Assembly: GCA_017618275.1 (NCBI GenBank)
Contig: JAFZUS010000128.1
Location: 1 to 64,000 of the forward strand
DNA from: Prevotella sp.
Lineage (GTDB): Bacteria; Bacteroidota; Bacteroidia; Bacteroidales; Bacteroidaceae
Length of the DNA stretch: 64,000 nt
Reading direction: 5' to 3'
In this document: positions 3,392 to 60,267 of the stretch, piece by piece
How positions within the stretch are numbered: the first letter of the stretch is position 1
How the letters are laid out: each line of letters begins with the position of its first letter
Notes under the pieces: generated by a model
Seen by the model: the letters and a program-made list of their open reading frames with translations, nothing else
What the model was told of the DNA's origin: nothing
Database searches by the model: none
Translations under genes and position numbers: made by a program

Positions 3392-4852
3392 ATGAGAATA
3401 ATTGTAATAATCATAATAGCAATGGTGATGAATGCGTGTGACGGACAGACGAAGCAGGCAGTGGTGCGACCTGCCACACAGGCAAACCGATTCTATACGG
3501 GGGACGCTGAGGAACTGAGACAAGAGGTGGATAGTTTCCTAAGAATGCACCGTGGGAAGACGCAGTATGAGAATATGGCAGCAGTGATCGTGCCCCATGC
3601 AGGGTATTATTACTCGGGCAATGTGGCTGCATCGGCGTATATGTCGATTGACAATAAGAAGCCATACAAGCGGATTTTCCTGCTGGGACCGAGTCATCAT
3701 GAGTGGCTCAACGGGGCTTCGGTGAATACAGAGGCTGACTATTATGCCACACCTTTAGGCAATGTGAAGGTAGACCACGAAACGGCTGTCAAATTAACCG
3801 AGGATTCTGCGTTTTTCTACCGTCCTGAGGCACACGACAGGGAGCATTGCTTGGAAGTGCAGTTACCGTTCTTGCAACGTAGGTTTGGCGAGAATCTGCC
3901 ACCCATCGTACCGATTATCATTTCCACCAACGACTATCAAAAGTTGAAACAAATGGCGGAGGTACTTAAGCCGTATTTCACAGATGAGAACCTGTTTGTG
4001 ATTAGTAGCGACTTTTCGCACTACCCTAACTACGAGGATGCCTGCGAGGTGGATGCTCGGACAGGAAAGGCGATTGAGACAGGCCATGTGGAGGAGTTCA
4101 TTGCCACCATCGAAGCAAATGAAAGATTCGGAAAACGAAACCTGGCCACAAGTGCCTGCGGACAGTTTCCTATTATCACACTGATGCTGATGCTCGACGG
4201 GTATTACGAGGTGAAGCATCTGATGTATCAGAACTCTGGCGACATCAGCGGTGATCATTCTCGTGTGGTGGGCTATCATTCGTTTGCTTTCTTACGTAAG
4301 GATAGTACGAATTTCGTACTCTCCGACACAGATAAGCGTCTGCTGAAAGAGATTGCATTACAGAGTATCAAAGACTCTCTCGATGGGAAACCCATCACAC
4401 AGCCAGATCTTAGTTCTATATCCTCAGTAGTTAGTTCAAAGTGTGGTGCATTTGTATCATTGCATGAGCACGGACGACTTCGTGGCTGTATCGGACATTT
4501 CGGCGAGGACTATCCGCTGTATGAGATTGTTTCCCAAATGGCCCGTTCCGCCGCCTTCGAGGATCCGCGGTTCGCGCCTGTCCGTCGTGAAGAACTGGAA
4601 GATCTTGATATCGAGATATCCGTACTCACACCCATGAGGCGCATCCAAAGTCTCGATGAGTTGGAACTGCACCGTCACGGCATCTATATCCGAAAGGGCT
4701 ACCGCAGTGGTACATTTCTACCCCAAGTGGCCGATGAGGTGAACTGGACAAAAGAAGAATTCGTGGGACACTGCTCTCAGGACAAGGCCGGACTCGGATG
4801 GAACGGCTGGAAAGACGCAGAATTGTATGTATATGAGGCCATTGTGTTCTGA
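3392..4852 (+). CDS. Memo-AMMECR1 fusion (AmmeMemoRadiSam system proteins B and A), putative lipoprotein
   Basis: A 486-aa fusion of two normally separate proteins. Residues about 25-300 are the Memo family (RPATQANRFYTGDAEELR; the metal-site-like histidines IVPHAGYYYSG, LGPSHHEWLNG and DFSHYPNYEDA). Residues about 320-486 are AMMECR1 (HEHGRLRGCIGHF, RSAAFEDPRFAPV, EISVLTP). Start MRIIVIIIIAMVMNACDG at 3392 gives a hydrophobic stretch ending at a cysteine, a loose lipobox, so the protein may be exported and lipid-anchored. Its stop overlaps the start of the radical SAM gene (TGATG), so the two are translationally coupled. The biochemical role of this three-part system is unknown; the fold assignment is firm, the export is inferred. 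Confidence 0.87.
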   Translation: MRIIVIIIIAMVMNACDGQTKQAVVRPATQANRFYTGDAEELRQEVDSFLRMHRGKTQYENMAAVIVPHAGYYYSGNVAASAYMSIDNKKPYKRIFLLGPSHHEWLNGASVNTEADYYATPLGNVKVDHETAVKLTEDSAFFYRPEAHDREHCLEVQLPFLQRRFGENLPPIVPIIISTNDYQKLKQMAEVLKPYFTDENLFVISSDFSHYPNYEDACEVDARTGKAIETGHVEEFIATIEANERFGKRNLATSACGQFPIITLMLMLDGYYEVKHLMYQNSGDISGDHSRVVGYHSFAFLRKDSTNFVLSDTDKRLLKEIALQSIKDSLDGKPITQPDLSSISSVVSSKCGAFVSLHEHGRLRGCIGHFGEDYPLYEIVSQMARSAAFEDPRFAPVRREELEDLDIEISVLTPMRRIQSLDELELHRHGIYIRKGYRSGTFLPQVADEVNWTKEEFVGHCSQDKAGLGWNGWKDAELYVYEAIVF

Positions 4853-5715
4853 TGGAGTGTCGGTATTATCAAAAATTAGATGATGGAAGAGTAGAGTGTC
4901 TTCTCTGTCCGCATCATTGCCGTATATCCGATGGCAAAACGGGAATCTGCCACAGTCGTCGCAATCATAGTGGCATACTCATCAGTGAGGTCTATGCCAA
5001 ACCTTGTGCTCTGGCCATCGACCCCATTGAGAAGAAACCGCTCTACCACTTCCATCCAGGCACCACATGTCTCTCCATCGCCTGCACAGGCTGTAATTTC
5101 CGTTGTCTGAACTGTCAGAACCACGATATCTCGCAGGTCTCGCCCTCAGATGTTAATCATTATCATTTATCGCCCGAAGAAGTAGTAGGCCTCTGCCAGA
5201 AGCATCACTGCCCAGGTATCGCCTACACTTATACCGAGCCGTTCACTTACATTGAATATATCATCGATTGTGCCCGTCTGGCCCACGAGGCAGGTCTCTG
5301 GAATATTCTCGTTACGGCAGGTTACGTCTGTCAAGAGCCTTTAAACGACCTCCTGCCCTATCTCGATGCTGCCAACATCGACCTGAAATCGTTCAGCGAC
5401 GACATCTACCACCAAGTCAGCGGAGGACATTTGCAACCCGTACTCGACACTATTCTTACAATGCACAATGCTGGCGTATGGATAGAACTTACCAACCTCG
5501 TCATTCCTGGCATCAACGATGATATGAACATGATTCGTCAGATGTGCCGTTGGCTCGTCTCAAACGGTCTTTCTGACGCTCCATTACATTTCAGTCGCTT
5601 TTTCCCTCGCTTCAAGATGCAGGACAAGTCTCCCACTTCCATCCAAACACTACAAGCCGCCAAACAAGTGGCTGAGGAGGAGGGCATCAAACATGTATAC
5701 TTAGGAAACGTATGA
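4852..5715 (+). CDS. amrS: AmmeMemoRadiSam system radical SAM enzyme
   Basis: Radical S-adenosylmethionine enzyme of 287 aa, related to pyruvate-formate-lyase activating enzymes. The cluster motif CNFRCLNC (Cx3Cx2C, about residues 81-88) binds the 4Fe-4S cluster. An additional N-terminal cysteine set is visible (ECLLCPHHC about 15-23, GICHSR), as in this subfamily. YTYTEPFTYIEYI and DLKSFSDDIYHQVSGG match the TIM-barrel core. It overlaps the preceding Memo-AMMECR1 gene by one base. The substrate is unknown for the whole family. If the partner is exported, enzyme and partner would lie on opposite sides of the inner membrane, which is a puzzle. Confidence 0.9.
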   Translation: MECRYYQKLDDGRVECLLCPHHCRISDGKTGICHSRRNHSGILISEVYAKPCALAIDPIEKKPLYHFHPGTTCLSIACTGCNFRCLNCQNHDISQVSPSDVNHYHLSPEEVVGLCQKHHCPGIAYTYTEPFTYIEYIIDCARLAHEAGLWNILVTAGYVCQEPLNDLLPYLDAANIDLKSFSDDIYHQVSGGHLQPVLDTILTMHNAGVWIELTNLVIPGINDDMNMIRQMCRWLVSNGLSDAPLHFSRFFPRFKMQDKSPTSIQTLQAAKQVAEEEGIKHVYLGNV

Positions 5716-5778
5716 TTTCTTTGGAAGCAAAATTTCACTTTTTCTCTGAAACAATGCAACTATATGCAGAGAATTTCG

Positions 5779-5786
5779 TAATTTTG
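5779..5786 (+). promoter_or_regulatory. -7 promoter element of mnmG
   Basis: TAATTTTG, full match to TAnnTTTG, 17 nt before the mnmG ATG. Confidence 0.55.
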
Positions 5787-5802
5787 CGGGCAGAAATAAG
5801 AT

Positions 5803-7764
5803 ATGAATATGATACTGAAGTATGATGTCATTGTTATTGGAGGTGGTCATGCGGGTTGTGAGGCAGCCTGCGCCAGTGCCAACATGGGTGCAAAGACCTG
5901 TCTGGTAACGATGGATATGAATAAGATTGCACAGATGTCGTGCAATCCAGCCATTGGTGGCATCGCTAAAGGACAGATAGTCAGAGAGATAGATGCGCTT
6001 GGCGGACAAATGGGTTTAGTCACTGATGCCACCTCGATACAATTCCGGATGCTGAATGTTGGTAAGGGACCAGCGGTGTGGAGTCCAAGAGCGCAATGCG
6101 ACAGAGGAAAGTTCATCTGGGAATGGCGCAGACGACTCGATGAAACGGAGAATCTGGAAATCTGGCAAGACCAGGCAGATGAACTCATTGTAGAGTCTGT
6201 TGCTGTGGCACAGCCGCTCGGCTCTGCCGCTTCGCTCGTCGAAGAACAAACAAAACGGGCCATTGGTGTGCGCACCATCTGGGGTGCAGAAATCTATGCC
6301 AAATGCATCATCCTGACAGCAGGCACCTTCCTCAACGGCTTGATGCATATTGGCAGGAAGATGGTAGATGGAGGACGTATTGCAGAACCAGCAGTGCCCC
6401 ATCTCACAGAAAGCATCACTCGTCATGGGGTTGTATCAGCCAGGATGAAGACAGGAACACCTGTACGCATCGACAAGCGTTCCGTACATTTCGAGGACTT
6501 GGAGATCCAGCCAGGCGAAAACCGCCCCTATCAGTTCAGTTATCTGAACCAAAGCGGAGCCCTGAAGCAATTGCCCTGTTGGACAGTGAACACCAACGAG
6601 GAGGTGCATGAAATCCTGAAAAGCGGTTTGGCCGACTCCCCACTCTATAATGGACAGATTCAATCGATAGGACCTCGCTATTGTCCTTCGATAGAAACGA
6701 AACTCGTCACCTTCCCAGACCGTGAAAAACATCCTTTGTTCTTGGAGCCAGAAGGCGAAAATACCAATGAGATGTATCTCAATGGCTTTTCTTCTTCACT
6801 ACCTATGGATGTACAGATAAATGCCTTGAGAAAAATGCCTGCTTTCAGGGATGTGAAGGTATATAGACCTGGGTACGCCATTGAATATGATTTCTTCGAC
6901 CCAACCCAATTAAACCACTCGTTGGAATCGAAAGTGATTGCCAATCTCTTTATGGCTGGACAGGTTAATGGTACTACGGGTTACGAAGAGGCTGGAGGCC
7001 AAGGAACGATAGCAGGTATCAATGCTGCCCTGAAGGCTGGTTCTGCTGGCAGTTGTGGCACAGCAACAAACAAGACCGAACCGTTTGTGCTCCATCGCGA
7101 TGAGGCCTATATCGGCGTACTCATCGACGACTTGGTGACAAAAGGTGTAGACGAGCCCTATCGTATGTTTACCTCTCGTGCCGAATATCGTATCCTACTG
7201 CGTCAAGATGATGCAGATGCCCGTCTCACCGAGAAGGCATATGAATTAGGTCTGGCAAAAAGAGAAAGGTACGACTGGTGGTTGGAGAAAAAACAGCACA
7301 TCGAAGAAATCGAATCTTTCTGTCAAGACTTTGCGATTAAACCGAAATTGATCAATTCATCTCTCGAAGCCCTTGGCACCACCCCACTTCAGTTTGGTTG
7401 TAAACTCATTGATCTGGTGAACCGCCCCCAACTCAATCTAGCCAATCTCTCGGAAATCATTCCAGCATTAAAAGAGGTATTAAACCGCCCGGTTAATCGC
7501 AAAGAAGAAATCGCAGAGGCTGCAGAGATCAGGATGAAATATAAAGGATACATCGAAAGGGAAAAGGTGGTTGCAGAGAAGATGCACCGTTTGGAGAACA
7601 TCAAGATCAAGGGACACTTCAACTACGAAGAACTGCAAGGTCTCTCCACCGAGTGTCGACAGAAACTGATGAAGATCCAACCCGAGACATTGGCACAGGC
7701 CAGTCGTATTCCTGGAGTCTCTCCGAGCGACATCAATGTGCTCCTAGTTCTGATGGGGAGATAA
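5803..7764 (+). CDS. mnmG: tRNA uridine-5-carboxymethylaminomethyl modification enzyme MnmG (GidA)
   Basis: FAD-dependent enzyme that works with MnmE to make cmnm5U at the wobble base of certain tRNAs. Clear signatures are VIVIGGGHAGCEAA at the N terminus, MSCNPAIGGIAKG, GPAVWSPRAQCDR, TGTFLNG-like ILTAGTFLNGLMHIG, GQVNGTTGYEEAGGQG and DEPYRMFTSRAEYRILLRQDDAD (given here as SRAEYRILLRQDDAD). At 653 aa it is about 25-30 aa longer than usual; the extra residues seem to be two low-complexity insertions, near 6211-6250 (VAQPLGSAASLVEEQ) and 7036-7070 (GSAGSCGTATN). Start MNMILKYDV fits the family. First of the mnmG-apt-uvrC run; mnmG is often near the replication origin. Confidence 0.97.
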   Translation: MNMILKYDVIVIGGGHAGCEAACASANMGAKTCLVTMDMNKIAQMSCNPAIGGIAKGQIVREIDALGGQMGLVTDATSIQFRMLNVGKGPAVWSPRAQCDRGKFIWEWRRRLDETENLEIWQDQADELIVESVAVAQPLGSAASLVEEQTKRAIGVRTIWGAEIYAKCIILTAGTFLNGLMHIGRKMVDGGRIAEPAVPHLTESITRHGVVSARMKTGTPVRIDKRSVHFEDLEIQPGENRPYQFSYLNQSGALKQLPCWTVNTNEEVHEILKSGLADSPLYNGQIQSIGPRYCPSIETKLVTFPDREKHPLFLEPEGENTNEMYLNGFSSSLPMDVQINALRKMPAFRDVKVYRPGYAIEYDFFDPTQLNHSLESKVIANLFMAGQVNGTTGYEEAGGQGTIAGINAALKAGSAGSCGTATNKTEPFVLHRDEAYIGVLIDDLVTKGVDEPYRMFTSRAEYRILLRQDDADARLTEKAYELGLAKRERYDWWLEKKQHIEEIESFCQDFAIKPKLINSSLEALGTTPLQFGCKLIDLVNRPQLNLANLSEIIPALKEVLNRPVNRKEEIAEAAEIRMKYKGYIEREKVVAEKMHRLENIKIKGHFNYEELQGLSTECRQKLMKIQPETLAQASRIPGVSPSDINVLLVLMGR

Positions 7765-31986: not shown

Positions 31987-33261
31987 ATGAAAAGAATTAT
32001 TGTTTATAAATTGATAGTTTTTCTACTAATGGGTCTTTTGACAGGTTGTGTACAACCAAAGCCCCAAAGAGTAAACGCAGAGGACCACACAGAAATCAAA
32101 GATTCTCTGACGGCTGAAAACAATGAGAATTATCAATTTGAGGAAGAAGATCGTGCTCTTATTCAAAATGGGAATGCTTTTTCGTTACAACTTTTTCAAA
32201 AAATAGCGGCAGAAACAAAGAAAAGCACATTCATTTCTACCATTGGCATTCTTTACTCTTTAAATATTCTGAATCTTGGAGCAACAGGTGAGACACTTCA
32301 GGAAATTTGTGATGTTTTAGGTGTTGACAGCACAGATTTAAAAAGGATGAACACACTTTGCCGTCGAATGATAAAGGGACGGGTAAAAATGCAAGCAGAT
32401 GATTTGCCAGGGCTTTCGTCAAACTTGTTAACAGGCTGTGCTCTCTTTGTAAAAAGTGGCGTTGAGATATCCCAGTTATTTACTAACGACTTTGAACATT
32501 TTTATTTTGGACAAATCATTCAAGGTAGTTTCGATGACAAGATGCAAAATCAGATAGATGACTGGTGCAGTGACAAAACGGATAATAAAATAAATCATTT
32601 ACCAATCGAGGGTGACGCACAATGTATTTTGGCTGTCGTTAACTGCTTTAATGGAAAATGGGAAAAGGAATTTGATACGGAGAAAACGAAAGAAGAACCT
32701 TTCTATGGAAGAAGGCACAAGACTGTCATGATGATGAATGATGCGGATTACGACAGAAAACTATCTATTGCTCAGCGGTCAGATTATTCATTGTTAAGGA
32801 TTCCATACCGTGGCGGTTATGTGATGTATGTCATATTACCTGAAAAGGGAAAAATGTTACCATCAGTCATTCATAAACTTACTTGGAAAGAGTTGCAAAA
32901 TGCTATTGACAATTTGGACTACTATGACACTGTCTATATAAAACTTCCAAAGTTTGAAATGGATTATAACTGGATAGCTAATAAATGTTTGACATCATTG
33001 GGAATACACAAAGTGTTTGGACATGAGGCTGATTTGGATAATTTGAATAAAGATCTTTATGTATCAAATATTTCACAATACACCAAGATTAAGGTAGATG
33101 AAATAGGAACAGATGCGTCAGCTATAACTTTTGAGGTATTAAAAGCTAAAGAAGAAAAAGAACCTTCTGTCGCATATTTCTATGCTGACCATCCTTTTGC
33201 CTATATTATTCAAGATACATTTGGTAACTATTGTTTCATGGGAACATTCTGGGGTGATTGA
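31987..33261 (+). CDS. Serpin-family lipoprotein 1
   Basis: 424 aa. Signal peptide with lipobox LLTGC (Cys about 21), then CVQPKPQ, without the acidic export signal, so it may stay periplasm-facing. The serpin fold is clear: STIGILYSLNILNLGATGETL, TLCRRMI, ILAVVNCFNGKWEKEF, YSLLRIPYRGGYVMYVILPEKG, VYIKLPKFEMDYNW, and the end ADHPFAYIIQDTFGNYCFMG. The hinge region VDEIGTDASAIT is close to inhibitory serpins. Counting from it places a Lys near P1 (VLKAKEEKE), which would suit trypsin-like proteases; this position is an estimate. The gene is more AT-rich than its neighbours. Confidence 0.9.
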   Translation: MKRIIVYKLIVFLLMGLLTGCVQPKPQRVNAEDHTEIKDSLTAENNENYQFEEEDRALIQNGNAFSLQLFQKIAAETKKSTFISTIGILYSLNILNLGATGETLQEICDVLGVDSTDLKRMNTLCRRMIKGRVKMQADDLPGLSSNLLTGCALFVKSGVEISQLFTNDFEHFYFGQIIQGSFDDKMQNQIDDWCSDKTDNKINHLPIEGDAQCILAVVNCFNGKWEKEFDTEKTKEEPFYGRRHKTVMMMNDADYDRKLSIAQRSDYSLLRIPYRGGYVMYVILPEKGKMLPSVIHKLTWKELQNAIDNLDYYDTVYIKLPKFEMDYNWIANKCLTSLGIHKVFGHEADLDNLNKDLYVSNISQYTKIKVDEIGTDASAITFEVLKAKEEKEPSVAYFYADHPFAYIIQDTFGNYCFMGTFWGD

Positions 33262-54482: not shown

Positions 54483-55796
54483 CTATTGTCCTGTGAACTT
54501 GCCTACGAAGAGGATAACGCCAGAAGAGGCTTCGCTGATGACATAGACGAAGGGACGATTAGCGTGGAAGGTGGCCTTGGGATACTCAACGGGACCGCCT
54601 ATGGAAGTGCATTCATTCATACCTGCAATAGTAACTGCAGCGGCTTCAGAACCTTCCTCGTTGACCTTGATTTTGGCCTTTTGGCGCATCATGGCGATAT
54701 AGACAGGAACGTCGCACATATTGGGTATTTGAGCGAAGGAATCGTCGAAAGCCTGATTGATGCCCATCTTCTGCATCAGGCCTATAAGCCCGTCTTTAAG
54801 ATTGTTTGTGTCCGAACTTGTCTCAAAGCGTGGCAGTTTCAGATCTACCTCATAGCCTTTGAAGAAGTTTCCTCCTGTTTCGCACCAAGCAGGATTATTC
54901 AAAATACTACTTTGTGTCACCTCTTTAATGATGTCGTCGATAGTTTCCCCCTTTTCTGGCAGCAAGACAGTCATGTTCCAAAGACCAGAACCATAAGGCA
55001 GGATAACAGCAGAGTAGGTGTTGGTTTTCAGATAACTAATCAGCACGTTTTGGTGCATCAGGGGTAGTTTGTTTGAGCCGTTTTCTGTGGTAAAGGTCTC
55101 TTCCTTGGTGTTCTTCTGGTCGAACTTCGAGGCCCAATCCGCCTTAAAGTAGATGGCATTCAGCAGATACGACACTATACTTGGATCCACCTCGTCGAGG
55201 ATGGTGGGAATCATGCCGTTGGTCTTCTCCTTGCACCAGCCGTTGATATGATTGAGTGTTTGTGGCGATGAGAAGTCGAGTGCCTCAGCCTTCGCATCGT
55301 AATAGTTTTTCATATCTTGCTCAAACTGAGGATTTAAGGTATAGTTCTTATTCAGGAAGATGGCGTTGGCAATGTTCAGCGTCACCTTGTCGTCTACCTT
55401 AGGCAGACCTTCAATCAGTTTCTTGCAATAGTCGTTAACTGCCTGTATGCCTCCCTCGTGGAATCCTAAAGTCTCCTCTAATTCTTTTTCTGTAGTTCCT
55501 ACAGCAGCATCGTTCACCATTCCCAAGACGTAGGTGATGCTCAATGGCGAGTAAATAAAACTCTTGCCACTCTGATCCACATCATTCACCGTTTTCAGGA
55601 AGTTCAGCGTGAAACGGTTATTGTCGTTGGCAAAGACTCTCTGTGCCTCCGTCAACTGTATCGGCTGTGGTTCCGACAACATATTTACCACTTGCTTGGC
55701 CTCACCCAAGTCAATACTCTCTTCCTCAGACGAGGAACAAGACACCATCGCACCACTCAGCACAACGGCTGCCAACAAAAATAGATACCTTTTCAT
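54483..55796 (-). CDS. Serpin-family surface lipoprotein 2
   Basis: 437 aa. Lipobox MVSC with CSSSEEES following: the acidic run after the cysteine fits the surface-export signal of Bacteroidetes lipoproteins. Serpin core: FIYSPLSITYVLGMVNDAAVG, NIANAIFLNKNYTLN, LLNAIYFKADWASKF, AVILPYGSGLWNMTVLLPEKG, VDLKLPRFET. The hinge NEEGSEAAAVTIAG is the canonical inhibitory form (small residues P12-P9). Counting from it puts P1 near the segment MNECTS. Ends with HANRPFVYVISEASSGVILF. Last gene of the five-gene lipoprotein operon. Confidence 0.93.
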   Translation of the reverse strand: MKRYLFLLAAVVLSGAMVSCSSSEEESIDLGEAKQVVNMLSEPQPIQLTEAQRVFANDNNRFTLNFLKTVNDVDQSGKSFIYSPLSITYVLGMVNDAAVGTTEKELEETLGFHEGGIQAVNDYCKKLIEGLPKVDDKVTLNIANAIFLNKNYTLNPQFEQDMKNYYDAKAEALDFSSPQTLNHINGWCKEKTNGMIPTILDEVDPSIVSYLLNAIYFKADWASKFDQKNTKEETFTTENGSNKLPLMHQNVLISYLKTNTYSAVILPYGSGLWNMTVLLPEKGETIDDIIKEVTQSSILNNPAWCETGGNFFKGYEVDLKLPRFETSSDTNNLKDGLIGLMQKMGINQAFDDSFAQIPNMCDVPVYIAMMRQKAKIKVNEEGSEAAAVTIAGMNECTSIGGPVEYPKATFHANRPFVYVISEASSGVILFVGKFTGQ

Positions 55797-55817
55797 CTGC
55801 TATTTCTTTATGGATTA

Positions 55818-56264
55818 TTATTTCAGTTTTTGGAAAGTATAGCCATCACCGTCAAAAGCTTCTTGAGAAAGGTAAAGAAAGCCTTTGTCAAAGGTATAAC
55901 TATACGTAAAAAAATAGCCAAAAGATATACATGTTCTTGGCTCACCTGTAAATATGGATCTTTCAATATCAACAAAAGAGTACGTCCATTTGCCTGTTGC
56001 AAAAGGGCGCTGGTCTTCTCTTTTATTGACGACTTGCATTTCCCCATTTTTGGTGAATGTAACAGTCACCTCCCCGGCTTCGTAATCCTCTTTAATTCCC
56101 CAGCCATTAGAATAGTGTAATATGTGCCAGGTTCCAATAAGGTTTTCTTTATCGTTGTTATTACTGAATTCCTGAACATAGTCGTAGTCATCGTCTTTGC
56201 TGCAACTGCTCAGTCCTGCCAATATCAGCACAACGGCTGCCAACCGAAATAAAAACTTCTTCAT
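55818..56264 (-). CDS. Lipocalin-like surface lipoprotein
   Basis: 148 aa. Signal peptide and lipobox LAGLSSC, then SKDDDYDY, a strong acidic surface-export signal. The mature part has NLIGTWHILHYSNGWG, TVTFTKNGEMQVVNKREDQRPF and GKWTYSF: 'L.GTW' plus 'G.W.Y' is the lipocalin-like (DUF4923/lipocalin_5) pattern of small beta-barrels. Ligand or partner unknown. Spaced 21 bp from its neighbours in the operon. Confidence 0.78.
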   Translation of the reverse strand: MKKFLFRLAAVVLILAGLSSCSKDDDYDYVQEFSNNNDKENLIGTWHILHYSNGWGIKEDYEAGEVTVTFTKNGEMQVVNKREDQRPFATGKWTYSFVDIERSIFTGEPRTCISFGYFFTYSYTFDKGFLYLSQEAFDGDGYTFQKLK

Positions 56265-56285
56265 ATCTGTATTTCTATTTATTTC

Positions 56286-57107
56286 TCAAAAAGGAATAAA
56301 ATGCTTCATGCCTACATAGATAATTTGTCCTGTATGCGCATCAATCTCAGCAGATTCATTAGAGTCAATTTCACATGGCCAACTTCCCATATACGTCGTT
56401 GCTTTTATTGCAGGTCCTGTTATATAATAGACCAGTCGTTGTTCACGCCTGAAAGTCTCTCCCTCTACTCTGACGTGATACTCTCTGGCATAAAGGGTAG
56501 CAGTCCATGAAGTCTCTATCGGCTTTTCCAGATATGCAGAGAATATTTTTATAGCCTGATTGCCAGTGATGGCAGGTGTCACATCAAGGTTGTCGAAGGA
56601 AATGAAATAGCCCGAGCAATGATGGATGTGCTGTTCCTGAGGGTTATAAAAGTAAAGAAAAGAATACTGTCCGCCCAAGACAGGGATGCCACGATAATAT
56701 TCATGGTAGAAGTCCTGTCTATGGCTATATCCCTCTTCACTGTCCGTGTAATGCTCCACAGAATCTAATTTCAGACTATGATCATCATCCAGATTAAATA
56801 GTGTTCCGTCCAGTTCCTCATAAGAAGATGGAGCAGCATACAATTTTTCGATAGGATCCCCTTTATCATAGAGGGTTGCCCACCGATAGCGTCCCTCATC
56901 ATCTATACAGACATTCCAATTGTCAAGGGTCTCAACGTGGGTCTTGTAGTTATAACTCAAATCATTACTAGAATAAAGTGGAATCAAAAAATTCTGCCCA
57001 TTTTCTTCATCATGCAAGCCATAATCGGTGATGTCATCATCACTACTGCTGCATCCTGCCAGTATCAGCAGAAGTGCACTTATCCATAATAGACTTTTCT
57101 TTTTCAT
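56286..57107 (-). CDS. Lipoprotein resembling an M4-protease propeptide (FTP/PepSY) without a protease
   Basis: 273 aa. Lipobox LAGC with CSSSDDDITD, a surface-export signal. The C-terminal half reads like the fungalysin/thermolysin propeptide: YRGIPVLGGQYSFLYFY (138-154), CSGYFISFDNLDVTPAITGN (164-183), then the PepSY-like RLVYYITGPAI and EIDAHTGQIIYVG (254-266). In true M4 precursors this propeptide folds and inhibits the enzyme and the peptidase follows the 'DAHTGEI' end; here the protein stops there. A secreted inhibitor or chaperone of a metalloprotease is likely. Family match by eye, function inferred. Confidence 0.7.
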   Translation of the reverse strand: MKKKSLLWISALLLILAGCSSSDDDITDYGLHDEENGQNFLIPLYSSNDLSYNYKTHVETLDNWNVCIDDEGRYRWATLYDKGDPIEKLYAAPSSYEELDGTLFNLDDDHSLKLDSVEHYTDSEEGYSHRQDFYHEYYRGIPVLGGQYSFLYFYNPQEQHIHHCSGYFISFDNLDVTPAITGNQAIKIFSAYLEKPIETSWTATLYAREYHVRVEGETFRREQRLVYYITGPAIKATTYMGSWPCEIDSNESAEIDAHTGQIIYVGMKHFIPF

Positions 57108-57118
57108 AATTAATAACT

Positions 57119-57796
57119 TTAATTTGATGGAAAGTCAGAACTCAGAATTTCCCCTGAATGAGCGTCAACAAAACATTCATAATAAGCAAAGCACCCAACA
57201 CAATTTCCATACACATAGGTTAATCGAACATCAATTATGCCATTTGTGTAAAAAGGTGTTATTTGAAGTTGTATAGGTATTTCACTATCATTAAGATGAA
57301 GATATTTCACAATAATATACTTTGCTTGTTCTTTACTGATTGTCGGATTGACATCCAAATCGTCTATGGGTACAAATGCGCCTTCTATACTTTTCAGCAC
57401 GTCGTTTTCATCATAATTGCAAACATATCCACATCGATTTACCTGTATACCTTTATATAACTGGTCAAAATGTTTATAGTTCGTCAATGCATTCTTCAAT
57501 GAATGGCTAAACTTAAGTACATTGTCAACTGATAAAGGCATTTTGTCTTTGAAGAACAACTCTGCTGATGATGGAGGATTCGAGTTAAACTCTGCCCTTG
57601 TTATCATATTTGCATAAGTTGTTATTGTCCAAGAATCTTGGGTAATTACAACTTTATCTTCATCTGAAGGGAATATGTTTTGATACGAATACCTGCATTC
57701 TTGTGAAGACACATTATTATCGTCACCATCATCACTACTGCATCCTGCCAGCATTAGCAGAAGGGCGCTTATCCATAAAAGATTATTTATCTTCAT
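57119..57796 (-). CDS. Second lipoprotein resembling an M4-protease propeptide
   Basis: 225 aa. Lipobox LAGC with CSSDDGDDNN. Its signal region is nearly the same as that of the preceding gene (NNLLWISALLLMLAGC against KSLLWISALLLILAGC), so they are likely paralogues. Matching parts: LYKGIQVNRCGYVCNYDEND (113-132), IEGAFVPIDDLDVNPTISKE (137-156), and FVDAHSGEILSSD (209-221) at the very end. The usual PVxGG is changed to QVNRCG, so this copy is more diverged. No peptidase domain follows. Confidence 0.68.
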   Translation of the reverse strand: MKINNLLWISALLLMLAGCSSDDGDDNNVSSQECRYSYQNIFPSDEDKVVITQDSWTITTYANMITRAEFNSNPPSSAELFFKDKMPLSVDNVLKFSHSLKNALTNYKHFDQLYKGIQVNRCGYVCNYDENDVLKSIEGAFVPIDDLDVNPTISKEQAKYIIVKYLHLNDSEIPIQLQITPFYTNGIIDVRLTYVYGNCVGCFAYYECFVDAHSGEILSSDFPSN

Positions 57797-57806
57797 AGTT
57801 ATTTGT

Positions 57807-58319
57807 TTATAAGTCGATTGTGATTACATTCTGATCCTTGAAGGAGATAATGCCATTGTAGTCAGCCCATGTTTCTTGATGTTTTTGGCCGTCATGTTCA
57901 ACAATTGTGACAGTCCGACGATTCACCACCAAGTGATAGTTGTTCATCGTGGCATTACGGATGGTGAAGTAGATGTTGATGTGACAGATGCAGTCTACCA
58001 TATTCTCGGCTTCGTTCCAAGGGTTCAACACGAGTGTGCCGTCAGCATCTTGCTCGATATTGATGCCTGCATCGGTATAGTCGCAACTTAGCGTATAATT
58101 AATGTACTCGCCCGTGATGGTTTGGTCGGCCTCATTATAAGTCAGTTTCAACTTAGATGCAAACGGGTTTTCATCTTCGCCACGTGTTCGAGAATGGTTT
58201 TCACATTCGCTGTGCGAGACTTTTGAAAGCGAAATAGATTCTGTAATGCTGTCGCTGGTAGAACAACTGCTTAACATGAGCATCATTGCGCCCATCCATA
58301 AGAAAATGTTTTTTTTCAT
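57807..58319 (-). CDS. Surface lipoprotein, unknown, first gene of the operon
   Basis: 170 aa from MKKNIFLWMGAMMLMLSSC at 58319 (an ATG at 58340 is also possible). Lipobox then CSTSDSITES. The mature part (LKLTYNEADQTITGEYINYTL, CDYTDAGINIEQDADGTLVL, CICHINIYFTIRNATMNNY) is beta-rich with two or three cysteines and no match I can name. Leads the lipoprotein-serpin operon and is divergent from the sigma factor. Confidence 0.7.
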   Translation of the reverse strand: MKKNIFLWMGAMMLMLSSCSTSDSITESISLSKVSHSECENHSRTRGEDENPFASKLKLTYNEADQTITGEYINYTLSCDYTDAGINIEQDADGTLVLNPWNEAENMVDCICHINIYFTIRNATMNNYHLVVNRRTVTIVEHDGQKHQETWADYNGIISFKDQNVITIDL

Positions 58320-58355
58320 ACTTGTTCGTTTTGTTTGCATTTTTAATTCTTTCTG

Positions 58356-58363
58356 CAAATATA
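58356..58363 (-). promoter_or_regulatory. -7 promoter element of the lipoprotein-serpin operon
   Basis: Minus strand TATATTTG, full consensus. The left arm of the inverted repeat at 58376-58391 lies where the -33 region would be. Confidence 0.6.
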
Positions 58364-58375
58364 ATACGGGAATTG

Positions 58376-58439
58376 GCAAAATCTTGTATGGAAATACGTT
58401 AAAGAATCTAAAAAGATAGCAATCCCATACAAGATTTGC
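58376..58439. promoter_or_regulatory. Inverted repeat between the divergent sigma and lipoprotein promoters
   Basis: GCAAAATCTTGTATGG (58376-58391) and CCATACAAGATTTGC (58425-58439) are inverted copies (15 bases, one extra A). Each arm lies just upstream of one of the two divergent -7 boxes, so one regulator or the local ECF sigma could control both directions. Confidence 0.6.
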
Positions 58440-58440
58440 G

Positions 58441-58448
58441 TAATTTTG
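58441..58448 (+). promoter_or_regulatory. -7-like element of the ECF sigma gene
   Basis: TAATTTTG, consensus match, 30 nt before the ATG and directly after the right arm of the inverted repeat. Confidence 0.5.
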
Positions 58449-58477
58449 AATTATTAAAGTAGAACATAAGGATAAAA

Positions 58478-59020
58478 ATGGTCGAACAACTCGTTGAGCG
58501 CATACGGCAGAAAGACCAAAGGGCGATGAGCCAGTTCTATCAGACGTACGTCAAGGAACTTTCATCGGTCTGCTACCGTTATGTGCCTTCTGGCGACGAT
58601 GCGAAGGACGTGTTGCAGAACAGTTTCGTGAAGATATTCACGTCGATTCCGACCATTGCTTATCATAGTGATGAAGCCCTTTGGGGCTGGATGAAACGGA
58701 TAGTGGTTAATGAGTCACTCGCCTATCTCAGAGAAAGGAAAAGACTGCTCTTCGTGGTGCAAGCGATAGAAGGTGTGGAGCAGATGGATGAGTCAGAGCC
58801 ACAATCAGAACAGATCTCGTCAGAAGAACTGCACCAACTGATCAGCGAACTGCCTGACGGCTATCGAACGGTGGTGAACCTCTACGTCTTCGAAGGTTAC
58901 TCTCATAAGCAGATTGCAGAACTGCTTGGTATCAAAGAGAGCACTTCTAGTTCACAATTCTATTATGCAAAACGGCTATTGGCTAAGCAAATCAAGAAAT
59001 TAACAAACGACAAGCGATGA
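58478..59020 (+). CDS. ECF-type RNA polymerase sigma factor
   Basis: 180 aa. Region 2: QFYQTYVKELSSVCYRYV, DDAKDVLQNSFVKIFTSIPT, WGWMKRIVVNESLAYLRER. Region 4: ELISELPDGYRT-like LISELPDGYRTVVNLYVFEG, YSHKQIAELLGIKESTSSSQ and YYAKRLLAKQIKK. Regions 1 and 3 are absent, as in ECF factors. The stop overlaps the next gene by 4 bp (ATGA), the usual sigma/anti-sigma coupling. It is divergent from the lipoprotein-serpin operon with a shared inverted repeat, so that operon is its likely target. Confidence 0.95.
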   Translation: MVEQLVERIRQKDQRAMSQFYQTYVKELSSVCYRYVPSGDDAKDVLQNSFVKIFTSIPTIAYHSDEALWGWMKRIVVNESLAYLRERKRLLFVVQAIEGVEQMDESEPQSEQISSEELHQLISELPDGYRTVVNLYVFEGYSHKQIAELLGIKESTSSSQFYYAKRLLAKQIKKLTNDKR

Positions 59021-60267
59021 AAGAGGACTGGATAAACGATATGAGACGCAAGTTGGAGAATCATCAGATGGATCCTCCTCCAGGGCTGTGGGACGATATC
59101 TGCAAGCAGATGGGTCTCTCGCCAGAGCCTGTTCGTAAGCCCACTACCACCAAGCGTTTGTATTGGGCAGCGGCAGCAGCCGTCTTGGCACTTGTGGGGT
59201 TCTTCGTCTTTCAAAACATCAACAACAGCGAGCAGCCTCAACAGGCCAATGCTGTCTCTCAGCAGCCACTCTCTGAACAGCAGTTACCAGAAAAACCAGT
59301 ATCCCAGCCATTAGCAGAATCAAATCCTGTGGAACAGGAGCCTCAGACAAAAGCACCTCTCTTAGCCCTTGCCCGTCATCAACAGCCAGTTGCTGAGAGC
59401 GAGACTGTGACAGAAGAAGTATTGCCAGAATCAGACTCTCCTGCAGAAGTCCTACAGACACCTGACGAACCAAAACCGGCTGTCGATGAGTCTAAAAAGA
59501 TGATAAGTGAATCCCAACAAACATCTGTCGAGCCTCAGCAAACGACAAATTTGGCACAGAAAGCAGAATGGTTGGAGAATCTGCCAATTGCAGAGAGTAA
59601 TGACGTACAGACCCAAAACAAGTGGTCTTTGGGCCTGAATGCCTCTGGGGGACTGCTTGCTGCCAACACCTCTCAGCGTACGGATCGTCTCTATCATCCT
59701 AGTTCTATGTATGATGATATTAATCGTTTTGATGGTAATCAATCTCAAAATGAAGTTGGTGATAAATCCTATGCCTATACGCTGACAGAATACAAATCAG
59801 AACATCACCTGCCGATACGCTTTGGCGTGAGCCTGAATTATCAGTTGACGCCTCATATCGCCCTGCTCAGTGGCATTAGTTATACCTATCTTTATTCTGA
59901 GTTCAGCATTCCCCTTTATGAGAGTGCTACCTATGACCAGAAGTTGCATTATCTTGGTATTCCCCTTGGGGTATCCTGGCAGTTGTGGTCAACCCATCGT
60001 TTCCAGTTCTACCTCTCTGGTGGTATGATGCTGGAGAAGTGTGTGAGTGCTGATTTGGATGGTGGTTCTGCGAGCAAAAAACCTTGGCAGTGGTCTGTTA
60101 GTGCAGCGGCTGGTGCAGAGTATAACCTTATCCCTCAACTCGGCTTCTATTTGGAGCCCTCTCTCGGCTATTACTTCGACGATGGCACCACTTTGGAACA
60201 CTATTACAAGAAGCACCCCCTTGCGCCAACTATCGAATTTGGCCTGCGCCTGCATCTCAATGAATAG
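59017..60267 (+). CDS. Anti-sigma-like inner-membrane domain fused to an outer-membrane beta-barrel
   Basis: 416 aa in three parts. Residues 1-46 are cytoplasmic and helical (DWINDMRRKLENHQMDPPPG, WDDICKQMGL), where anti-sigma domains sit. Residues about 47-66 form one transmembrane helix (YWAAAAAVLALVGFFVF) with no signal-peptide cleavage site. Residues about 67-200 are a disordered linker rich in Gln, Glu, Pro and Ser. Residues about 201-416 are an outer-membrane barrel: NKWSLGLNASGGLLA, IRFGVSLNYQLTPHIALLSG, YLGIPLGVSWQLWS, FQFYLSGGMML, ending TIEFGLRLHLNE. It overlaps the sigma gene by 4 bp. One chain would reach from cytoplasm to outer membrane; regulation of the sigma factor is inferred. 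Confidence 0.85.
   Translation: MKEDWINDMRRKLENHQMDPPPGLWDDICKQMGLSPEPVRKPTTTKRLYWAAAAAVLALVGFFVFQNINNSEQPQQANAVSQQPLSEQQLPEKPVSQPLAESNPVEQEPQTKAPLLALARHQQPVAESETVTEEVLPESDSPAEVLQTPDEPKPAVDESKKMISESQQTSVEPQQTTNLAQKAEWLENLPIAESNDVQTQNKWSLGLNASGGLLAANTSQRTDRLYHPSSMYDDINRFDGNQSQNEVGDKSYAYTLTEYKSEHHLPIRFGVSLNYQLTPHIALLSGISYTYLYSEFSIPLYESATYDQKLHYLGIPLGVSWQLWSTHRFQFYLSGGMMLEKCVSADLDGGSASKKPWQWSVSAAAGAEYNLIPQLGFYLEPSLGYYFDDGTTLEHYYKKHPLAPTIEFGLRLHLNE

What the first reader, a model, noticed from the sequence alone, without database searches (positions are those of the whole stretch)
54483..60267. ECF sigma locus that may display protease inhibitors on the cell surface
A sigma factor and its membrane partner are divergent from a five-gene lipoprotein operon. 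Of the five, one is a canonical-hinge serpin, two resemble free-standing M4-protease propeptides, one is lipocalin-like and one is unknown. Three or four carry acidic surface-export signals after the lipid cysteine. Seen directly: gene order, overlaps, 10-21 bp gaps, signals. Known: serpins and FTP/PepSY propeptides inhibit proteases of unrelated classes. Inferred: a regulon that senses envelope damage and answers with inhibitors of serine and metalloproteases, perhaps from the host or from competitors.
Basis: partly seen in the sequence, partly recalled or inferred. Interest (0 to 1): 0.82.

Follow-up and report, generated by a model that had tools for sequence, protein, structure and literature searches.

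The report
Stress-sigma locus for surface protease inhibitors
A rumen Prevotella carries a membrane-spanning stress switch joined by a shared promoter element to a set of lipoproteins that includes a protease trap (serpin) and two free-standing relatives of a metalloprotease's own propeptide; the switch-plus-serpin pairing recurs in other bacteria of the order, which suggests an inducible anti-protease coat.

Summary
The gene layout is as described. [quoted passage not shown] The serpin is clear (Pfam 5.1e-87). The two "propeptide" lipoproteins are below cut-off in Pfam, but a signal-peptide-free family profile matches the M4 propeptide of Mcp02 (6.8e-5), and the family is related to propeptides of M4 proteases in other genomes of the genus. 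"Lipocalin-like" is not confirmed. Four of five lipoproteins carry an acidic export signal.

New here: (1) 31 of 150 listed genus serpin matches lie within 6 kb of a Dma match, about 1.2 expected; four genomes of three other families also show the pairing. (2) The divergent promoters share a 13-bp inverted element, kept in most close relatives. (3) The serpin hinge is conserved, its bait loop hypervariable.

Best reading: an autoregulated ECF/Dma switch induces surface inhibitors against foreign proteases. Signal, targets and inhibition are untested. The parts are known kinds; the pairing is a new variant. At least 61 of 80 related named records bear ruminant or rumen-set labels, so host neutrophil or pancreatic proteases are not obvious targets.

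The parts
54483..55796 (-). Serpin lipoprotein, 437 aa, CSSSEEE after the lipid Cys, conserved hinge and hypervariable bait loop
   Evidence: PF00079 5.1e-87; 5ncs 3.3e-59; loop analysis
55818..56264 (-). 148-aa lipoprotein, CSKDDDY, unassigned fold (lipocalin-like only below cut-off)
   Evidence: potempin hit was a signal-peptide artefact
56286..57107 (-). 273-aa lipoprotein, CSSSDDD, free-standing relative of M4 (thermolysin-like) propeptides
57119..57796 (-). 225-aa lipoprotein, CSSDDGDD, free-standing relative of M4 propeptides
   Evidence: NF047971 2.6e-6 over its propeptide part, below the whole-protein cut-off
57807..58319 (-). 170-aa lipoprotein, first gene of the operon, no acidic export signal, function unassigned
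58379..58391 (-). Promoter element arm facing the lipoprotein operon (CCATACAAGATTT on the minus strand), followed by an ATTAT box
58425..58437 (+). Promoter element arm facing the sigma gene (CCATACAAGATTT), followed by an ATTAT box
58441..58448 (+). TAATTTTG, fits TAnnTTTG (recalled as the Bacteroidota housekeeping -7 box), kept on the sigma side only
   Evidence: sequence; 30 of 40 sigma side, 5 of 31 operon side
58478..59020 (+). ECF sigma factor, 180 aa
   Evidence: PF08281 1.2e-14 and PF04542 5.2e-11
59017..60267 (+). Dma-type anti-sigma factor, 416 aa: anti-sigma region, TM helix, Pro/Gln/Glu-rich stretch, outer-membrane barrel
   Evidence: PF13568 1.1e-6, over cut-off; NF052375 antisigma 6.5e-6, below cut-off; sequence

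Best explanation
The locus is an autoregulated ECF/Dma envelope switch whose local output is a set of surface lipoproteins that neutralise proteases. At rest the Dma-type protein, reaching from cytosol to outer membrane, holds the sigma factor; a low level of the pair is made from a housekeeping-like box. A disturbance at the outer membrane or cell surface frees sigma. Sigma then reads the same element in both directions, raising itself and the lipoprotein operon. The serpin traps serine (perhaps also cysteine) proteases; the two free-standing propeptide relatives block thermolysin-like M4 metalloproteases; export signals put four of the five on the surface and possibly on vesicles. The likeliest opponents are proteases of neighbouring rumen microbes. 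Shown: gene order, homologies, linkage above chance, shared element, conserved hinge with variable bait. Inferred: control by this sigma, surface location, inhibition, the signal and the targets.
For: Dma-like domain order matching PMC13088901. Serpin-Dma linkage: 31 of 150 printed genus serpin matches within 6 kb, 1.2 expected; 50 of 80 serpin-led loci have sigma and Dma (scan led by linked serpins, so biased upward); four genomes of three other families. Shared 13-bp inverted element, 42 of 44 loci on the sigma side and 34 of 44 on the operon side, spacing 38-39 bp in 32 of 34; in the own genome the strict pattern occurs only here plus twice inside genes; 3 of 28 checkable serpin loci without sigma/Dma have it. 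Hinge entropy 0-0.62 bits, bait loop up to 3.6 bits in 79 sequences. M4 propeptide relationship. Export signal in four of five, motif from PMC6222051. No M4 protease in the own genome.
Against: No expression, localisation or inhibition data. 121 of the 150 printed Dma matches have no printed serpin within 6 kb, and 30 of 80 serpin orthologs lack sigma/Dma within the fetched stretch (13 of these 30 lie within 2.5 kb of a contig end). The other lipoproteins are variable: of 80 loci, lcnB-like in 18, 170-aa relative in 3, 148-aa relative in 2 near the serpin. A second loop (292-313) is as variable as the bait. Only 38 of 72 serpin orthologs have two or more acidic residues in the export window. 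13 of 21 free-standing propeptide places show no serpin in the stretch seen, many with only 1.5 kb flanks.
Confidence: 0.58

Rival explanations
1. A general Dma envelope/vesicle regulon: the lipoproteins are stress or vesicle cargo with structural or toxin-immunity roles (as suspected for NigD-like proteins), and protease inhibition is secondary or absent.
For: Dma1 acts through the lipoprotein NigD1 on vesicle formation and a like pair in P. vulgatus answers a toxin, inducing NigD orthologs (PMC13088901 and PMC9308784 passages). Two of the five lipoproteins are unassigned and lipoprotein content varies.
Against: The serpin is the recurrent partner across layouts and families and keeps an inhibitory-type hinge with variable bait.
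Confidence: 0.2
2. Self-protection: the inhibitors guard the cell from its own secreted or released serine and metalloproteases rather than from foreign ones.
For: PMC4404884 proposes this for miropin in Tannerella (passage). Own serine and cysteine proteases were not surveyed here.
Against: No M4 peptidase in the own genome; none of the 18 genomes with a free-standing propeptide relative is among the 30 of 398 with M4 (about 1.4 shared expected, so weak). No protease gene was recognised in the operon.
Confidence: 0.15
3. The serpin is part of the sensor: its cleavage and collapse by an attacking protease is passed to the Dma barrel and frees sigma.
For: Serpin is often directly next to sigma-Dma, also as first gene of a serpin-sigma-Dma operon; serpins change shape on cleavage (recalled).
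Against: The serpin operon carries the switch's promoter element, as expected of an output; many Dma matches have no serpin nearby.
Confidence: 0.06
4. The 273- and 225-aa proteins are chaperones or adaptors that kept the PepSY-type fold but no longer inhibit a protease.
For: They are diverged (23-31% identity between the two window proteins) and the FTP part is weak (0.2).
Against: The family keeps the region that corresponds to an M4 propeptide up to its end (alignment) and matches Mcp02 propeptide. Absence of a self M4 argues against a chaperone role for an own enzyme.
Confidence: 0.3
5. The neighbourhood is accidental or simply inherited, without functional coupling.
For: The genus sets are related genomes, and most Dma matches lack a serpin nearby.
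Against: Different layouts, several deep serpin clades, other families and the shared promoter element.
Confidence: 0.04

Closest known systems
Dma1/Das1 and Dma2/Das2 of Bacteroides thetaiotaomicron (PMC13088901: abstract, introduction, passages)
   Same: Domain order of the anti-sigma factor, adjacent ECF sigma factor, nearby genes among the candidate outputs
   Different: Reported outputs are NigD1, own operon and glycan loci, vesicle formation; no serpin is mentioned in what I read. Here the partner is a serpin operon
Sigma/anti-sigma pair M0N98_03760-61 of Phocaeicola vulgatus (PMC9308784, passages)
   Same: Anti-sigma factor with predicted outer-membrane barrel; protective response to an antibacterial toxin
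   Different: Protection there goes with longer O-antigen and NigD orthologs, not with protease inhibitors
Miropin, serpin of Tannerella forsythia (5ncs/5ncw)
   Same: Closest solved relative; bacterial lipoprotein-type serpin of Bacteroidales (lipoprotein status of miropin recalled)
   Different: I know of no reported link of miropin to a Dma/ECF pair (recalled, not searched in its genome)
M4 propeptides (Mcp02 3nqy, prothermolysin 5a3y)
   Same: Family profile match over the FTP-PepSY region
   Different: Here free-standing, lipidated, with no protease attached and no M4 enzyme in the genome
Potempins of Tannerella forsythia
   Same: Works like, if the model holds: small lipoprotein inhibitors (inhibitor role recalled; the PMC4404884 passage calls them lipoproteins of unknown function before KLIKK protease genes)
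   Different: Potempin genes precede a protease gene, none recognised here; the profile hits were signal peptide

Membership tests
Dma anti-sigma factors | N-terminal anti-sigma region, one TM helix, long disordered stretch, C-terminal outer-membrane barrel | tested here: met
   Barrel PF13568 over cut-off; anti-sigma region NF052375 6.5e-6 but below cut-off; TM and stretch read from sequence by eye
Dma anti-sigma factors | Encoded next to its ECF sigma factor | tested here: met
   4-bp overlap with the sigma gene
Dma anti-sigma factors | Binds and restrains the sigma factor | not testable with these tools
   needs a bench test
ECF21 sigma factors | Membership of the ECF21 subgroup by sequence | not tested
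   no ECF21 model in the libraries used; ECF type itself is clear
Serpins (inhibitory) | Serpin fold family | tested here: met
   PF00079 292.9 bits, cut-off 27
Serpins (inhibitory) | Conserved small-residue hinge before the bait loop | tested here: met
   EEGSEAAAVT, near-zero entropy in 79 sequences
Serpins (inhibitory) | Covalent complex with a target protease | not testable with these tools
   needs a bench test
M4 FTP/PepSY propeptide homologs | Single-sequence Pfam match over cut-off | tested here: not met
   PepSY 0.17 and 0.13, FTP 0.2; of three true M4 enzymes of the genus, PepSY 0.17 and 0.12 in two and not listed in the third, FTP over cut-off in all three
M4 FTP/PepSY propeptide homologs | Family profile matches known M4 propeptides | tested here: met
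   A11: 3nqy 6.8e-5 (best single stretch 0.0012), 5a3y 0.013; A10, which adds three M4 propeptides: 5e-9, 5.4e-7
M4 FTP/PepSY propeptide homologs | Inhibits an M4 enzyme | not testable with these tools
   needs a bench test
Potempins (148-aa lipoprotein) | Sequence relationship of the mature part | tested here: not met
   PotE 1.4e-4 with signal peptides, no potempin hit at E up to 5 without them
Lipocalin-like proteins (148-aa lipoprotein) | Curated family match or fold | tested here: inconclusive
   only below cut-off; structure prediction was off
Surface-exported Bacteroidota lipoproteins (LES) | CS(D/E)2 or S(D/E)3-like acidic run after the lipid Cys | tested here: met
   four of five, not the 170-aa protein; acidic run starts at +3 or +4/+5 in the window proteins; motif from PMC6222051 passages

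The most novel reading that the evidence does not exclude
A bacterial 'acute-phase' anti-protease response: a sensor spanning both membranes reads proteolytic attack at the cell surface and answers with a coat, and a cloud of vesicles, bearing a suicide serpin with a fast-evolving bait loop plus free-standing relatives of rivals' own M4 propeptides, used as immunity by mimicry. The serpin-Dma unit would be a standing module of inter-microbial conflict across Bacteroidales.
Probability: 0.17. Interest if true: 0.85.

Novelty: new variant of a known kind. Interest (0 to 1): 0.62.

Why it matters
Outputs and signals of Dma/ECF switches are mostly unknown, and so are the targets of most bacterial serpins (general knowledge). 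A recurrent pairing of the two with a shared promoter element makes both questions directly testable: it names a candidate output for one branch of the Dma family and a candidate inducing condition (protease attack or outer-membrane damage) for bacterial serpins. Free-standing lipidated relatives of M4 propeptides would, if active, be a ready-made inhibitor type.

Tried and rejected
Potempin membership of the 148-aa family: the PotE hit at 1.4e-4 vanished when signal peptides were removed. Potempin hits of the propeptide family also began at the signal peptide and did not return in the mature-only profiles. Wider regulon: the strict promoter pattern occurs at only two other places of the genome, both inside coding genes; weaker sites were not sought. 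Lipocalin fold by structure prediction: tool off. Generic sigma-70 promoter and terminator scans gave numbers near their shuffles and were not used.

Rows dropped and limits of counts. One search uses only the 150 printed rows of each (both say that more matches exist) and assumes 3.0 Mb genomes and uniform placement. From I kept 21 places with at least 150 of 263 profile positions (18 genomes); the rest are mostly matches to positions 1-30 or so (signal peptide), four lie in M4 protease frames, and a few are partial. 'Serpin beside it' for 8 of the 21 is read, often with only 1.5 kb flanks. The four order-level pairs were picked by eye from the printed rows and then checked, where the Dma-type proteins of L203-L205 are only weakly like the window's (blast 1.8e-4, 1e-8, none; they were found by the profile). 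The gene caller is my own simple script. The script stopped at L123; one search repeated the count by tblastn for all 80. In one search the operon-side pattern is a little looser than the sigma-side one; two loci without the sigma-side pattern have a variant. In one search rows whose names hold a sign fell out of the group table, so only the drawn tree, not the count of 14 changes, is used; support is SH-aLRT only and long rows are unsure; the own-genome serpin of L015, with no Dma in its 12-kb stretch, falls inside a linked clade.

Literature: searches list no paper on a serpin beside a Dma/ECF pair. Most lists were cut (15 of 143, 15 of 32, 12 of 34, 12 of 830, 12 of 27, 8 of 77); (serpin with anti-sigma factor) listed 9 of 9. 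Only open-access papers are held. The Dma1 paper did not appear in any list and was not read, so this is no claim that nothing is in print.
Full report
What is there. The window belongs to a 3.6 Mb, 213-contig genome; its nearest named relatives at this locus are mostly Prevotella/Prevotellaceae records. Between an RNase III-like and a MurQ-like gene (names recalled from the sequence) lies a divergent pair of transcription units. On the minus strand, from the divergent promoter: 170-aa, 225-aa, 273-aa and 148-aa lipoproteins and a 437-aa lipoprotein serpin, with gaps of 10, 11, 21 and 21 bp. On the plus strand: a 180-aa ECF sigma factor overlapping a 416-aa membrane protein by 4 bp.

The regulator. 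The 416-aa protein has an anti-sigma region (NF052375, 6.5e-6, residues 17-84, below that model's cut-off), one TM helix and a Pro/Gln/Glu-rich stretch (read by eye) and a C-terminal outer-membrane barrel (PF13568, 1.1e-6, over cut-off). This is the domain order given for the Dma family in PMC13088901 (outline and abstract, passages and introduction seen), which describes Dma as found solely among Bacteroidota, next to ECF21 sigma factors, and tied to vesicle formation in B. theta. A like pair in P. vulgatus responds to an antibacterial toxin (PMC9308784, passages). Whether this sigma is ECF21 by sequence was not tested.

The serpin. Pfam 5.1e-87; best solved relative 5ncs, 3.3e-59, whose sibling entries are labelled miropin. 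In 79 aligned sequences (the window and 78 of the 80 loci) residues 378-389, the hinge, show 0 to 0.62 bits of entropy, while 393-403, the bait loop, range from 1.09 to 3.62; the mean over 45-434 is 0.99. A second loop, about 292-313, is equally variable, so the bait loop is not unique. This is the pattern of a working inhibitor whose targets differ among species; it is not proof.

The propeptide relatives. Single-sequence Pfam hits are weak (PepSY 0.13-0.17, FTP 0.2). Three stronger tests agree. (i) The 225-aa protein matches the propeptide part of an M4 family model at 2.6e-6, below that model's whole-protein cut-off. (ii) A profile of five members, run over 398 genus genomes, also hit four places inside ORFs of 709-829 aa. 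All four frames carry an M4 domain, and the three examined (L189, L190, L198) have both Pfam M4 domains and FTP over cut-off; PepSY is at 0.17 and 0.12 in two and not listed in the third. By blast L189 matches the window's 225-aa protein at 8.4e-11; L190 and L198 match free-standing relatives at 4.6e-12 and 1.8e-7; alignment. (iii) A profile of ten free-standing members without signal peptides finds the Mcp02 propeptide 3nqy at 6.8e-5 (best single stretch 0.0012) and prothermolysin 5a3y at 0.013; adding the three M4 propeptides gives 5e-9 and 5.4e-7. The own genome has no M4 match. 30 of 398 genus genomes do, and none of the 18 genomes in which I kept a free-standing copy is among them; about 1.4 shared would be expected, so this is weak. 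Of 21 free-standing places 8 show a serpin next to them in the stretch seen.

The others. The 148-aa and 170-aa proteins remain unassigned. A potempin match of the 148-aa family was a signal-peptide artefact.

Linkage. In 150 genus genomes, 31 of the 150 printed serpin matches lie within 6 kb of one of the 150 printed Dma matches, against about 1.2 by uniform placement. By similarity of the Dma match to the window, serpin-linked rows are 10 of 17, 9 of 28, 9 of 45 and 1 of 60, from closest to most distant. Of the 17 stretches around the closest Dma matches (L051-L067), 10 show a serpin beside the unit; five of the other seven are cut by contig ends, and L059 and L061 lack it. Layouts differ: serpin divergent from sigma, serpin-sigma-Dma in one direction, and sigma-Dma-serpin. 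In 295 genomes drawn across the order, four genomes of three other families (L202-L205) have a serpin beside a sigma factor and a Dma-type protein, one of them with two serpins. Three further genus contigs (G018:C262, G127:C4, G086:C96) have a serpin 0.8-2.4 kb from an ORF that matches the sigma part of a sigma-barrel fusion. A serpin-led scan of named genomes returned 80 loci; 50 have both sigma and Dma within 6 kb, 41 of the 58 with at least 2.5 kb on both sides. That scan was led by linked serpins, so the fraction is biased upward. In a tree of 109 serpins, linked ones occur in several deep clades.

Promoter. The 158-bp intergenic region holds one inverted repeat, 13 bp and perfect, CCATACAAGATTT, one arm facing each way (58379-58391 and 58425-58437, 33 bp apart). 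Of 44 loci with a close sigma ortholog, 42 have the element facing sigma and 34 also facing the lipoprotein side; spacing is 38 or 39 bp in 32 of 34. Both sides share a downstream ATT(A/C) box and AGAA: 33 and 27 of 40 unique sequences on the sigma side, 22 and 18 of 31 on the operon side; shuffles give 2.2, 1.0, 3.8 and 0.9. Only the sigma side keeps TAnnTTTG, recalled as the Bacteroidota housekeeping -7 box: 30 of 40 versus 5 of 31, shuffles 1.0 and 0.4. This fits basal expression of the switch and stricter dependence of the output on the element. Among 30 serpin loci without sigma/Dma, 3 of 28 checkable have the element upstream. In the own genome the strict pattern occurs four times: these two, and two inside coding genes; the reversed control pattern occurs 0 times. 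So by the strict pattern the regulon is this locus alone; weaker sites were not sought. That this sigma reads the element is inference.

Surface location. Four of five lipoproteins have three acidic residues at +2..+7, the 170-aa one has one. In B. theta such a signal is needed for surface exposure and vesicle packing of SusG (PMC6222051, passages). Across orthologs 38 of 72 serpins have at least two acidic residues there, against 17 of 70 other lipobox proteins in the same stretches: enriched, not universal.

Ecology. Of the 80 record titles, 27 name a ruminant host or foregut organ, 34 bear RUG/RUI labels (recalled as rumen genome sets), 19 say neither. Sampling bias is possible. Host neutrophil or pancreatic proteases are therefore less likely targets than those of rumen microbes, among them protozoa and other Prevotella; this is inference.

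Mechanism and confidence. I hold control of the operon by this sigma at about 0.8, an inhibitory serpin at 0.85, surface display at 0.7, M4 inhibition by the propeptide relatives at 0.45, and foreign proteases as targets at 0.6. These are judgements, not computed values. The signal is unknown; outer-membrane disturbance is the best guess from PMC9308784.

Novelty. The recognised parts belong to known families. What I did not find in the held library (searches, mostly cut lists) is the pairing: serpins as a recurrent partner of Dma/ECF pairs with a shared promoter element, and lipidated free-standing M4-propeptide relatives in the same operon. The Dma1 paper did not appear in any list and was not read. 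I rate it a new variant of a known kind.

Noticed in passing
L018:5567-7240 (own genome C180:59566-61239, outside the window): A single 557-aa protein joins an ECF sigma factor (Pfam r2 and r4) directly to a TM helix, a long stretch and an outer-membrane barrel: a sigma factor apparently tethered across the envelope without a recognised anti-sigma region. Matches at E 1e-40 or better in 53 of 150 genus genomes; 50 printed rows span nearly the whole protein. No literature search was made for it.
   Followed up: partly
window 31987-33261 (+): A second serpin lipoprotein in the window, without an acidic export signal (CVQPKPQ) and on a very long branch of the serpin tree.
   Followed up: partly
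L012:183-2684; L013:32-2314 and 4073-7309; L014:8-1171; L015:3880-5166; L016:4456-5007: Unusual serpin richness of the own genome: 11 serpin matches in 8 ORFs, among them a two-serpin protein of 833 aa and two proteins of 760 and 1078 aa with a serpin domain behind other sequence. In one search no other genome printed has more than 7 matches.
   Followed up: partly
L065:7798-9360 (same contig as L148): Sigma and Dma-type protein in one 520-aa ORF, the counterpart of the window's overlapping pair; possibly a natural fusion or a sequence error.
   Followed up: no
L017, L054, L069-L073, L078, L082 (directly upstream of sigma): A family of nine lipoproteins of 208-266 aa next to the sigma gene of more distant Dma pairs, with no Pfam match in the three scanned; a second candidate partner of Dma switches.
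   Followed up: partly
L098, L101, L102, L106, L109: Serpin orthologs without sigma/Dma in the fetched stretch still keep a small lipoprotein of one family (lcnB) directly upstream, but not the promoter element.
   Followed up: partly
L189, L190, L198: The M4 protease genes of other genus genomes are each preceded by a small ORF of 120-170 aa, a lipoprotein in L190 and perhaps L198, which recalls the lipoprotein-protease pairs of Tannerella KLIKK genes (PMC4404884 passage).
   Followed up: no
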